A stretch of 50,528 nt of DNA from Clostridia bacterium (GTDB taxonomy: Bacteria; Bacillota; Clostridia; Oscillospirales; CAG-272), in contig JAFTSU010000012.1 of assembly GCA_017467105.1 (NCBI GenBank), positions 1 to 50,528 on the forward strand. Direction: 5' to 3'. The position numbers and the translations under genes are program-made. The notes under the pieces were generated by a model. The model was not told where the DNA came from and made no database searches. It saw nothing but the letters and a program-made list of their open reading frames with translations. Every line of letters starts with the position of its first letter. Position 1 is the first letter of the stretch. This document shows positions 154-3,080 of the stretch, one piece after another.

Positions 154-761
154 TGCAGCAATATTCTTACACTACGGGAAAGAATGCCACAGACTCAGCA
201 ATGATAATTGATGCTATGGACATTCTTTATGCTGGAAACGTAGATGGATTTTGCCTTGCATCTTCAGACAGCGATTTTACAAGATTGGCTGCAAGATTAA
301 GAGAAGCTGGTATGATTGTAGTAGGAATGGGAAAACAGCAAACGCCACGTCCCTTCGTTACTGCGTGTAGCCAATTTAAGTACATTGATCTTATTAGTGA
401 AGAAACTACAGCGGTAACTGAACCTCAAGAAACTAAAACGTCCACTAAAACATCTTCTACTAAAAAGCAACCCAAAACCAAGCAAAAAGAAACAGACGAG
501 GTTGATTCTGGTGCCACCAAAGATGTTGAAATCCAGGACTATGTTCGAAAGTGCATAGAGGAAAATTCTGAAGAAGATGGATATATGTTAATGAGTGATT
601 TGGGATTACTATTACCCAAAAAATATCCGGATTTTGACCCGAGAAATTTTGGGAAGAAAAAGTTGTCTGACTTGCTAAAAGTATGGGGATTTGAACTTAA
701 AGCAGTACAAGATCCAAACAATAAAAAGAATCCTTCTGGATTAATTATGTATGTGAAATAA
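153..761 (+). CDS. NYN-domain (LabA/DUF88-like) protein with C-terminal OST-HTH/LOTUS domain, 5'-truncated
   Basis: Residues 1-70 match the second half of a NYN/PIN-like nuclease domain: the core SYTTGKNATDSAMIIDAMD is followed by the conserved SSDSDFTRLAARLRE segment with its acidic residues. A Lys/Thr-rich linker (about 85-120) leads to a C-terminal OST-HTH/LOTUS-type winged helix (about 125-202). The family acts as a metal-dependent RNase or RNA-binding protein. Family members normally have 50-60 more residues before this point, with the first catalytic Asp. Here ATG153 corresponds to an internal Met (usually xTPxQQxSYTTG), no ribosome-binding site precedes it, and the frame upstream does not look like NYN. 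It is therefore a truncated gene and probably inactive. An inverted repeat follows the stop codon. Confidence 0.75.
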   Translation: MQQYSYTTGKNATDSAMIIDAMDILYAGNVDGFCLASSDSDFTRLAARLREAGMIVVGMGKQQTPRPFVTACSQFKYIDLISEETTAVTEPQETKTSTKTSSTKKQPKTKQKETDEVDSGATKDVEIQDYVRKCIEENSEEDGYMLMSDLGLLLPKKYPDFDPRNFGKKKLSDLLKVWGFELKAVQDPNNKKNPSGLIMYVK

Positions 762-764
762 TTG

Positions 765-803
765 TATTTGTGCACTCTTTCTCTACGAATGAGTGCACAA
801 ATA
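765..803 (+). terminator. Inverted repeat after the NYN gene
   Basis: A perfect 13-bp inverted repeat (765-777 with 791-803, 13-nt loop) starts 3 bp after the NYN stop codon. There is no T-run after it, so termination is plausible but not certain. Confidence 0.5.
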
Positions 804-807
804 CTAT

Positions 808-1038
808 ATGCCACTCCGATTTCGGCTGCATAGCAAATCCCTTATACTCCTATGCGGTGCAAACGTGCCGTTTAGTGCTGCGCACTGCGTTCGCAAAATG
901 CGAACTACCGCGGAGCAATCTGCACTCGCTCGCTGACGAACAAGCTCGTCGACTTGCTTCGTTTTATTATCTACCTGCTAGGAACTTTATGAGCGAGTAT
1001 TTTGACACGAGGTACTTGCGTTCTTGGAGTGTGGCAAA
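808..1038. repeat. Structured dispersed repeat, copy A (cloverleaf plus 102-bp invariant block)
   Basis: This copy aligns with 2851-3080 at a constant overall offset of 2043 and shares 102 identical bases (912-1013 with 2955-3056). Positions 854-911 can form a compact cloverleaf. The closing stem is 854-859 with 906-911. Three hairpins sit inside it: 861-865/869-873, 874-878/882-886 and 889-895/899-905, each with a 3-nt loop. In the invariant block, 935-939 pairs with 946-950 and 924-930 pairs with 992-998. The copy lies between the NYN inverted repeat and the promoter of the next gene. The structure was paired by hand. The orientation of any transcript is unknown. Confidence 0.85.
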
Positions 1039-1065
1039 GTGCTCCTCGTCGGTCGCGGGAAACTA

Positions 1066-1094
1066 TTGACTTTCGCACCGTGGCGTAATATAAT
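1066..1094 (+). promoter_or_regulatory. Sigma-A type promoter for the MBL-fold gene
   Basis: TTGACT (1066-1071), 17-bp spacer and a consensus TATAAT (1089-1094), 43 bp before ATG1138. It begins just downstream of repeat copy A. Confidence 0.85.
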
Positions 1095-1137
1095 AGTGAT
1101 GCGACTACAAAAATCCTAAGTTCTGCGGGAGGCAAAA

Positions 1138-1878
1138 ATGAGCATTAAATTTTACACGCTTGGTACAAGCCATGGCGCGACCGAGGTCGGCAGAAGCTGC
1201 TCGGTCAATATGGTAGAGGTGGGTGGCAGCTACTACGTCTTTGACTGCGGAGGAAATATCGAGACCAAGATGAAGGATCTCGGCATGCCGTTTGAGAACC
1301 TGAGGGCAGTGTTCATTTCGCATATGCACGAGGATCACGCTGGCTCTCTTACGGCGGTTGTCAAGAGATTTTCCCATTACATAAAAGAGGAACGCTCGGT
1401 AAAGATATATATGCCGGAGGCAGACGGCATCGAGGCATTACGCGCCTGGGTTGCCGCGCTTCATACTACAAAAAATCTCCACAGGGTAAGCTATGAGCTT
1501 ATAAATGCCGGCGAGATCTATCGCGACGAGAAGATCGCTGTCACCGCCATAGCTACAAGACACGTTCTTGGCGGCACTTTTCCGTCCTATGCCTTTATGA
1601 TTGAGGCAGAAGGGAAGCGCCTTCTTTACACGGGTGATTTGGCGGAAGATTTCTCTGACTATCCGGCAGTGCTTTTTGCAGAGGACTTTGACCTCGTTGT
1701 TTCCGAGCTCGTGCACTTCAATCTTGAGAACAATCTAGACACTATAAAAAAGACAAGAACGAAAAAGCTGGTCTTTACCCATATGAATCTGCGCAAAGCT
1801 GCGGTAATTCGCGGTATTATCGACGAGTTTTCGTTTGAGGTGCAGGTTGCCGAGGACAACGATTGCTTTGACGTCTGA
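1138..1878 (+). CDS. MBL-fold metallo-hydrolase (RNase Z-like superfamily)
   Basis: A 246-aa protein with the metallo-beta-lactamase signature FISHMHEDHAGSL at about residues 58-70, a downstream His in TRHVLGG, the metal-ligand Asp in LLYTGDLAEDF and a late His in LVFTHMNLR. It should be a cytoplasmic hydrolase binding two zinc ions, closest in layout to the RNase Z/YhfI-like branch. The substrate cannot be read from the sequence. The start at 1138 is supported by GGGAGG 5 bases upstream and a strong promoter at 1066. It is a single-gene unit between hairpin-rich intergenic elements. Confidence 0.85.
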   Translation: MSIKFYTLGTSHGATEVGRSCSVNMVEVGGSYYVFDCGGNIETKMKDLGMPFENLRAVFISHMHEDHAGSLTAVVKRFSHYIKEERSVKIYMPEADGIEALRAWVAALHTTKNLHRVSYELINAGEIYRDEKIAVTAIATRHVLGGTFPSYAFMIEAEGKRLLYTGDLAEDFSDYPAVLFAEDFDLVVSELVHFNLENNLDTIKKTRTKKLVFTHMNLRKAAVIRGIIDEFSFEVQVAEDNDCFDV

Positions 1879-1883
1879 TCTTG

Positions 1884-2066
1884 AAAACAGTTTGCCCAAA
1901 AGGCACGGGTAGCGAAGCGGCGCGAGAGCGTTAGAAAACAACTGATTGTTGTTTTCCCTCGAGCGTGACCGAACCACAGTGAGATCAAGCTCGCTCACCA
2001 GTGGCGGAGCGAAAAATCTTCGCCAGAGGCGAATACCTCTCACCCAAGCTAAATCCAGAGGTTTTC
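1884..2066. other. Hairpin-rich intergenic element
   Basis: There is no gene here. Several inverted repeats follow one another: 1934-1942/1948-1956 (9 bp, 5-nt loop); 1974-1977 with 2001-2004 enclosing 1979-1983/1994-1998; and 2019-2024/2028-2033 (6 bp, 3-nt loop). Like repeat copies A and B, this element ends just before a promoter. It shares no clear primary sequence with them. Confidence 0.5.
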
Positions 2067-2079
2067 TACCTGTTTTATA

Positions 2080-2108
2080 TTGACATTTTTCCATGCGTAT
2101 GTTATAAT
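2080..2108 (+). promoter_or_regulatory. Perfect-consensus promoter for the RRXRR-like gene
   Basis: TTGACA (2080-2085), 17-bp spacer and TATAAT (2103-2108), both boxes exact. The predicted leader is about 55 nt. Confidence 0.9.
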
Positions 2109-2170
2109 TGTTTTAAGTCGGGGACGGCACCCATAACAACAAACAGAAGACTTAGTTTACAGCAAAGGGG

Positions 2171-2707
2171 ATGACACCCATAGAAAAAAACGTAATTGTT
2201 GTTGACGAACAAGGAAAAATACTTGAATCGACCTATCCTAAACGGGCAAAAGGTCTTGTAAAAAAAGGCAGGGCACGCTTCATTGCTGAAAACAAAATTT
2301 GCCTTGCGTGCCCTCCTAATATTTTTTTGGAGGAAAATAAAATGGAAAACAATATAAAGCAATACAACAAGGAAGAACAGCAGCGTTTCTTTCAAAAAGC
2401 TAATGTATATATAATAAAAGGCAACGAAAATATAGTTTTCTTTGTTGATCCTTGTGATAGTGTTTGGCAAAAAACAGAGATTACAGTAATGATTGATGGT
2501 AGGTATTACAAAAAGCTTACTCCCACAGATGACACAAACAGGGCCTTTGTGTTAAAAAAGGTAGTGAACGGAATTTATAGCTATATTATTAAGCAGTTTG
2601 ACTCAAATGATAGTATTCTGTTTGAGCACGAAGAAACATTTGGATATTGTTATGAGGCAAATCTAGGTCCTTTACCAGGAGATATTGGTACTGTTAATGC
2701 CTGCTGA
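2171..2707 (+). CDS. Small protein with N-terminal RRXRR/PLMP-like (IscB N-terminus-like) domain
   Basis: A 178-aa protein. Residues 5-47 (VIVVDEQGK, then STYPKRAKGLVKKGRARF) follow the pattern of the RRXRR/PLMP domain that begins IscB-type proteins: hydrophobic-D-x-x-G-K, a Pro then Arg-rich helix, and KKGRAR. No RuvC or HNH nuclease region follows. Instead there are about 120 residues of mixed beta character ending in a Cys. Small stand-alone versions of this module occur in Clostridia with no known role, as far as I recall. An A/G-rich AAAGGGG abuts ATG2171, which is tight spacing for a ribosome-binding site. The gene is more AT-rich than the core genes, has its own perfect promoter and terminator, and lies between the two copies of the structured repeat. 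Confidence 0.6.
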   Translation: MTPIEKNVIVVDEQGKILESTYPKRAKGLVKKGRARFIAENKICLACPPNIFLEENKMENNIKQYNKEEQQRFFQKANVYIIKGNENIVFFVDPCDSVWQKTEITVMIDGRYYKKLTPTDDTNRAFVLKKVVNGIYSYIIKQFDSNDSILFEHEETFGYCYEANLGPLPGDIGTVNAC

Positions 2708-2748
2708 TACACTCAAATATTTTTTATTTGCTAAGGTTAATATACTTG

Positions 2749-2787
2749 ACAGACAGTCAAAACAAATGTTTTGGCTGTCTGTTTTTA
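2749..2787 (+). terminator. Rho-independent terminator of the RRXRR-like gene
   Basis: A 15-bp stem (2749-2763 with 2768-2782, one G-T wobble), 4-nt loop and a following T-run at 2783-2786. Confidence 0.9.
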
Positions 2788-2850
2788 GTTCTATTGTAAA
2801 TTCTGATTTTCAAAAAATCAGTGTTTCGTAAACCAAGCTATCGCTTTCTC

Positions 2851-3080
2851 ATGCCACTCTGATTTCGGCTGCATAGCAAATCCTTTATACTCCTATGCGG
2901 TGCAAGCGTTTCCGCTTGGTGCGATGCACCCACTCGCATTATGCGAACCACCGTGGAGCAATCTGCACTCGCTCGCTGACGAACAAGCTCGTCGACTTGC
3001 TTCGTTTTATTATCTACCTGCTAGGAACTTTATGAGCGAGTATTTTGACACGAGGTGCTTGCGGTCTTGCATTGTTGCGA
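2851..3080. repeat. Structured dispersed repeat, copy B
   Basis: Second copy of the repeat at 808-1038. The cloverleaf is conserved: closing stem 2897-2902 with 2949-2954; hairpins 2904-2908/2913-2917, 2918-2922/2926-2930 and 2934-2938/2942-2946. Compared with copy A, one base is gained in the first loop and one lost between hairpins 2 and 3. One A-T pair becomes G-C in hairpin 1 and another in hairpin 2, and the G-T wobble of the closing stem moves from one end to the other. The loops differ freely. The following 102 bases are identical to copy A. Copy B ends about 40 bp before the promoter of the next gene. Confidence 0.85.

What the first reader, a model, noticed from the sequence alone, without database searches (positions are those of the whole stretch)
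808..3080. Cloverleaf-forming repeat in two copies, with compensatory base changes
Copies A (808-1038) and B (2851-3080) share a 102-bp identical block and a preceding 58-nt region that folds in both into a closing stem with three tiny hairpins. Between the copies an A-T pair becomes G-C in hairpin 1 (863-871 to 2906-2915) and in hairpin 2 (874-886 to 2918-2930). The closing stem trades a G-T wobble at one end for one at the other, while loops change freely. One base is inserted and one deleted, which would break any reading frame but leaves the fold intact. This points to selection on structure (RNA, or DNA hairpins). Each copy sits just upstream of a promoter. I do not recognise a named family.
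Basis: partly seen in the sequence, partly recalled or inferred. Interest (0 to 1): 0.82.

Follow-up and report, generated by a model that had tools for sequence, protein, structure and literature searches.

The report
Cloverleaf-folding mobile DNA repeat
Two copies of a short DNA sequence that folds like a cloverleaf belong to a family of small mobile elements, which we could match to no known family, whose folded shape is strongly preserved in gut Clostridia although its letters keep changing.

Summary
Each copy is a fragment of the 3' end of a helix-turn-helix gene (minus strand) interrupted by a 125-bp insertion: 846-970 (A) and 2889-3013 (B). A relative has the gene uninterrupted (L025). 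The insertion has two parts, a cloverleaf (846-915) and an imperfect long hairpin (916-970). A covariance model finds it in 41 of 69 congeneric genomes, up to 17 copies each. Every hit in family-, order- and class-wide samples lies in one family. Over 112 distinct copies, 38 of 41 base pairs show changes on both sides, and 94.7% of cells pair (shuffles 71.9%). Near-identical copies at unrelated sites of one genome, and filled versus empty sites, show that it moves. It inserts as ACTCC...TTAT after a T, usually AT, without clear target duplication, often inside partial gene-end or tRNA-like copies. No Rfam, plasmid, phage or viral-contig match was found. Integron integrase and IS110 do not fit, and Y1 transposase does not explain it. 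Wobble statistics lean to folding as DNA, with mixed helices. Best reading: a new family of non-autonomous mobile repeats, bcr1-like in behaviour, moved through folded DNA by an unknown enzyme.

The parts
846..970 (+). Copy A of the mobile element (ACTCC...TTAT, 125 bp)
   Evidence: CM match 842-970, 125.2 bits; boundaries from filled vs empty site L025 and from the family
846..915 (+). Cloverleaf domain of A: closing helices and three hairpins
   Evidence: Helices 1-5 of the 41-pair structure
916..970 (+). 3' domain of A: imperfect long hairpin ending in TTAT
   Evidence: Helices 6-9; identical in B
2889..3013 (+). Copy B of the mobile element (125 bp)
   Evidence: CM match 2885-3013, 122.7 bits; boundaries as for A
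2889..2958 (+). Cloverleaf domain of B
   Evidence: 14 substitutions and 2 indel columns against A
2959..3013 (+). 3' domain of B
   Evidence: 0 of 55 differences from A
808..845 (-). Left flank of A: part of the 3' end of a helix-turn-helix gene, cut short before the stop
   Evidence: Homologous to the uninterrupted gene in L025
971..1038 (-). Right flank of A: gene part just upstream (in gene sense) of the insertion
   Evidence: Homologous to L025 (...KYLVSKCSLIKFLASD...)
2818..2888 (-). Left flank of B: 3' end of the same gene, down to its stop codon
   Evidence: Translates KGFAMQPKSEWHEKAIAWFTKH*; L025 has KGFAMQPKSEWHEKAIKWFLKEVYK
3014..3080 (-). Right flank of B: gene part just upstream (in gene sense) of the insertion
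   Evidence: ATMQDRKHLVSKYSLIKFLAG against L025

Best explanation
A and B are two copies of a small (112-143 bp) non-autonomous mobile DNA element. Shown: its copies share a two-domain fold (cloverleaf plus long imperfect hairpin) kept by compensatory changes; it sits as ACTCC...TTAT after a T, usually AT, with no clear target duplication; it has moved within genomes, and the same sites are occupied in different genera. Inferred: one DNA strand folds, and an enzyme supplied in trans recognises the folded shape more than the sequence, cuts at the two ends next to (T)TAT and inserts the element. The enzyme is not identified. In the window the element entered a helix-turn-helix gene; two fragments of the 3' end of that gene now flank a roughly 1.8-kb segment with two genes.
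For: Covariation: 28 of 41 pairs in 25 copies, 38 of 41 in 112 distinct copies, far above shuffled and slid controls. Mobility: three same-genome pairs at least 96% identical with unrelated flanks (G058 97.7%, G034 97.8%, G056 96.3%). Filled and empty sites: L025 against the window; spoIVB F-I site, intact ...ATTTATTGAG... against filled ...ATTTAT[element]TGAG...; GGGtGRT gene end, uninterrupted in L303-L306, L310 and L314 and filled exactly in L194 and L235. Ends: T before ACTCC in 145 of 148, A before that in 109 of 148, TTAT at the right end in 138 of 148. Tandem copies share TTAT. Fold as DNA: G.T 112 and A.C 135 of 5943 stem cells, while RNAs of the same genus favour G.U: TPP 17 vs 5 (29 of the 30 loci fetched; two always-G.U pairs not counted), tRNA acceptor stems 9 vs 2 (37 of 40 tRNAs).
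Against: No mobilising enzyme was found: integron integrase 0 of 69 genomes over the cut-off, IS110 1 of 69 over the cut-off, in a genome without the element, Y1 in 14 of 69 with element in 11 of those 14 and in 30 of the other 55 (Fisher p = 0.13). No ORF-bearing version was recognised in 0.91 Mb of fetched loci. Wobble counts differ by helix: in the closing stem and hairpin 1 G.T leads 79 to 26, as an RNA would; elsewhere A.C leads (recounted). Some sites carry one extra base at the right junction (window, spoIVB V-M site, four GGGtGRT copies), so insertion is not always exact. A6 was fitted to the model and copies are related, so the shuffle control overstates significance. One site cluster lies between a promoter and a ribosome-binding site, as a leader RNA would.
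Confidence: 0.68

Rival explanations
1. A functional RNA (leader or small RNA) that happens to be repeated; the fold is selected as RNA.
For: Whole-length covariation. In L218, L264, L268 and L197 the element lies between a TATAAC box and, in at least three, an AGGAG-type ribosome-binding site. Closing stem and hairpin 1 show G.T 79 vs A.C 26.
Against: No overall wobble excess (112 vs 135) unlike TPP and tRNA of the same genus. Contexts are very varied: gene fragments, tRNA-like fragments, stop codon of S9, tandem arrays. No Rfam match.
Confidence: 0.15
2. Mutation rather than selection keeps the stems: hairpin-templated correction (template switching in quasi-palindromes) makes both arms match again in any repeated palindrome, and the repeat is an ordinary decaying element.
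For: Equal G.T and A.C counts; A and B differ in the cloverleaf far more than next to it (14 of 69 vs 0 of 55).
Against: It does not by itself keep the same architecture of nine helices and the conserved words such as GAGCAATCTGC through all subfamilies, nor does it move copies.
Confidence: 0.12
3. A self-splicing or bypassed intervening sequence (intron-like), since it sits inside genes and a tRNA-like anticodon sequence.
For: Element inside spoIVB, GGGtGRT, helix-turn-helix and tRNA-like sequences; exact removal restores the frame at the spoIVB F-I site by reading.
Against: The interrupted copies are partial extras: 30 of 30 spoIVB genes examined are uninterrupted at both sites and the fragments lie apart or downstream. 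Joining the flanks of 77 copies gave an open frame of 190 aa or more in 8, several of them one-sided. The element ends the frame in L057.
Confidence: 0.03

Closest known systems
Bacillus cereus group repeats bcr1-bcr3 (MITE-like)
   Same: Interspersed structured repeats of 100-400 bp in Bacillota; [quoted passage not shown] described as MITE-like and often in UTRs (PMC3446304, passages). No encoded enzyme in ours either.
   Different: Here the end motif is TTAT, the fold is a cloverleaf plus hairpin, and the range is one family of gut Clostridia. No sequence comparison with bcr1 was possible: the primary paper is not held.
REP / BIME palindromes and RAYT transposases
   Same: Mobile palindromic DNA, some families without dedicated transposase, often downstream of genes (PMC3733652, abstract).
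   Different: REPs are 20-40 bp; ours are 112-143 bp. One RAYT-like gene (label recalled) lies near one copy only (L169).
Integron attC sites
   Same: Sequence-variable DNA recognised by its single-strand fold (PMC2727003, abstract).
   Different: No integron integrase over the cut-off in 69 genomes; the element carries no gene.
IS200/IS605-derived miniature elements (features recalled)
   Same: Hairpin ends, no target duplication, insertion 3' of a short T/A-rich word.
   Different: Y1 transposase is missing in four of the five genomes with most copies, and the fifth has only a weak RAYT-like match.

Membership tests
Rfam families | Score at or above gathering threshold | tested here: not met
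   0 matches in the window; none overlapping the element up to E 10 in six loci
IS200/IS605-derived miniature element | Y1 transposase in the genomes where it moves | tested here: not met
   14 of 69 genomes have Y1; element in 11 of 14 with and 30 of 55 without, p = 0.13. Genomes are incomplete, so past loss is not excluded
IS200/IS605-derived miniature element | Insertion 3' of a fixed short word, no target duplication (recalled) | tested here: inconclusive
   T in 145 of 148 and TTAT in 47 of 148 left flanks; exact sites and sites with one extra base
Integron attC | Integron integrase in the genome | tested here: not met
   0 of 69 over the cut-off of TIGR02249; 61 of 69 below it, as in all 14 controls, i.e. 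general tyrosine recombinases
IS110 with bridge RNA | IS110 recombinase present; element pairs with its target | tested here: not met
   1 of 69 genomes over the cut-off; complementarity of element and flanks equals permuted flanks
REP palindromes | 20-40 bp palindrome | tested here: not met
   Length 112-143 bp, median 129, in 148 copies
bcr1 type repeat | TTTAT motif at the ends | tested here: not met
   The end word is TTAT
bcr1 type repeat | Sequence or fold homology to bcr1 | not tested
   Consensus not available in the papers held
Self-splicing intron | Interrupts genes that must work | tested here: not met
   30 of 30 spoIVB genes uninterrupted; the element sits in partial copies
MITE in the wide sense | Short, without ORF, multi-copy, mobile | tested here: met
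MITE in the wide sense | Terminal inverted repeats and target duplication | tested here: inconclusive
   Ends ACTCC and GATTAT pair poorly; no clear duplication

The most novel reading that the evidence does not exclude
A new DNA recombination system: a 130-nt element whose cloverleaf is an exchangeable module, recognised as folded single-stranded DNA by an unidentified enzyme, and linked to the attachment-like gene-end copies that separate operon cassettes in these genomes.
Probability: 0.25. Interest if true: 0.85.

Novelty: new variant of a known kind. Interest (0 to 1): 0.6.

Why it matters
Covariation over nearly the whole length of a mobile repeat makes shape-based recognition of mobile DNA testable outside integrons, in a lineage common in ruminant gut samples. 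It also warns that covariation, the usual sign of a functional RNA, can come from mobile DNA.

Tried and rejected
Known RNA family: rejected. tRNA: ARAGORN found none in the window. Guided targeting: element-to-flank complementarity equals permuted flanks. Identical words between element and flank were in excess; without tandem copies a slight excess stayed at k = 5 and 6 (390 vs 357, 124 vs 102; 31 and 18 of 300 permutations at least as high), not at k = 4 or 7. Split or ORF-bearing versions: none recognised in 273 sequences (1 of 27 right ends lacked the middle box, 8 of 64 middle boxes lacked TACTC upstream; by reading six of these eight are full elements with changed letters, L076 is cut by a contig end, and L049 at 1173 is a stray match). 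Phage and plasmid carriage: no match; viral contigs tested only with one exact 22-base pattern. Wider range: 6 of 394 in an order-wide and 1 of 391 (the window's own) in a class-wide sample, none in another family; these used strict filters. Cloverleaf exchange as a rule: only 3 of 13 alignable pairs show it, and one shows the reverse. Papers: nothing on this family in the listings; most subscription papers are not held. IS200/IS605 traits are recalled.

Full report
What is there. Copies A and B start 2043 bp apart, share an identical 102-bp block, and differ mainly in the 70-nt cloverleaf (14 substitutions, 2 indel columns), while the adjoining 55-nt domain is identical (p = 0.0002). No further copy was found in the window's genome, which is 56.6% complete.

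Boundaries. A relative (L025, G012) has the two flanks joined in one uninterrupted gene, 192 codons from its first Met, with an HTH_17 domain. In the window the 3' end of such a gene (minus strand) is interrupted in both copies at TTAT by ACTCC...TTAT, 846-970 and 2889-3013. B keeps the gene end down to its stop; A lacks the last codons. So A and B are gene-end fragments with a shared insertion. No intact copy of the gene was found in the assembled part.

The family. From 25 copies I built models R1 and R2. R1 matches 41 of 69 congeneric genomes at E <= 0.01, up to 17 copies (up to 49 candidates scored per genome). R2 matches 28 of 395 genomes and 8 of 71 genera in a family-wide sample, 6 of 394 in an order-wide sample, all six of this family, and only the window's own genome of 391 in a class-wide sample that included other families. 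An exact pattern finds 29 stretches in named MAGs, all titled Clostridia or Oscillospiraceae; 25 of the 29 titles name a ruminant gut sample. No match in viral contigs (exact pattern), plasmids or phages.

Structure. The cloverleaf has closing helices and three hairpins; the 3' domain has an AATC/GATT stem, two short helices and an apical hairpin. On A2 (25 copies): 28 of 41 pairs with two-sided changes, 88.2% of cells paired, score 0.414 vs 0.158 in shuffles; the measure of further pair types was not above shuffles there (430 of 500). On A6 (114 matches, 112 distinct, part of them outside the training set): 38 of 41, 94.7%, 0.598 vs 0.184, slid controls at most 0.098. A6 was fitted to the model, and copies are related, so the shuffle control overstates significance.

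Mobility. Among 148 unique copies from 48 genomes, three same-genome pairs are at least 96% identical with unrelated flanks; other same-genome pairs share flanks and may be duplications. Tandem copies overlap by TTAT. Exact insertions: the spoIVB F-I site and the GGGtGRT gene end (L194, L235, Pfam PF14057). L195, L200, L203 and L259 have one extra base, as have the window site and the spoIVB V-M site. In L004 the element abuts a full ribosomal protein S9 gene whose stop codon lies at the junction. Flanks form 58 clusters for 147 copies; the two largest (20 and 16) are tRNA-like by my reading of the members shown.

DNA or RNA. In stems, G.T 112 and A.C 135 of 5943 cells. RNAs of the same genus show more G.U than A.C: TPP 17 vs 5, two always-G.U pairs not counted, 29 of 30 loci fetched; tRNA acceptor stems 9 vs 2, 37 of 40 tRNAs. 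By pair, G.T leads at 13, A.C at 21, ties at 7; in the closing stem and hairpin 1 G.T leads 79 to 26 (recounted). Cells are not independent, since copies are related. I read this as leaning to DNA, or to resident copies not being selected as RNA.

Cloverleaf exchange. At the same spoIVB-fragment site L021 and L006 differ by 51% in the cloverleaf and 9% in the 3' domain; L187 (another genus) and L006 differ by 1 of 73 in the cloverleaf, although their flanks differ by 15-22%. Three of 13 alignable pairs show strong excess in the cloverleaf and one the reverse. Window A/B, not among the 13, shows the same contrast. Recombination between copies is the simplest cause.

Mobiliser. Integron integrase and IS110 do not fit. 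Y1 is absent from four of the five genomes with most copies; element presence is somewhat, not significantly, higher with Y1 (11 of 14 vs 30 of 55, p = 0.13). Guide pairing was not found. The enzyme is open.

Context. Partial 3'-end copies of spoIVB lie in the same fetched stretch as intact spoIVB in 7 of 14 stretches, and partial GGGtGRT ends lie in the same contig as the intact gene in G041, G447 and G386. Between them are operons: in G041 the ten cargo proteins scanned are regulators and mostly sugar enzymes, with no recombinase. The element occupies some of these gene ends and not others, so I treat the arrays as a separate phenomenon that offers landing sites.

Verdict. Observation right, boundaries wrong, interpretation half right: structured, non-autonomous mobile DNA of a family that I could match to none described.

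Noticed in passing
L173-L179 (spoIVB), L321 and L322 (GGGtGRT gene): Arrays downstream of an intact housekeeping gene: operon-sized segments (1-6 kb; in L321 sugar-use operons with DeoR or AraC regulators) separated by partial copies of the 3' end of that gene, without a recombinase among the cargo proteins scanned. They look like attachment scars of cassette-like insertions.
   Followed up: partly
L187 and L209, and spoIVB fragments in L006, L176, L178: Many partial spoIVB ends are preceded by a shared non-spoIVB stretch (TGTTGTCC..TACCC..CAC, peptide CCP.TT) directly before the SGSP codons, as expected of the arm of an integrating element.
   Followed up: no
L195, L200, L203, L259; window 971-972; spoIVB V-M sites: One extra base (T or C) next to the first base right of the element, against the native site, in several unrelated sites. 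Unexplained.
   Followed up: no
L191, L193, L105, L117, L202: At tRNA-like T-arm sites the element is followed by a further variable hairpin (CTGCGCC..GGCGCAG type) and an inverted repeat of the T-arm.
   Followed up: no
L218, L264, L268, L197: Element between a shared TATAAC-type promoter and different genes, in three with an AGGAG-type ribosome-binding site: possible leader RNA in this subgroup.
   Followed up: no
window 761-807: 21-nt inverted repeat, 90% complementary, directly after the NYN/OST-HTH gene (153-761): likely terminator.
   Followed up: no
window 2171-2707: 178-aa ORF between A and B with a weak, below cut-off RRXRR match at its N terminus.
   Followed up: no
L169 1471-2001: RAYT-like transposase ORF (label recalled; weak Y1_Tnp match) about 0.3 kb downstream of an element copy.
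   Followed up: partly
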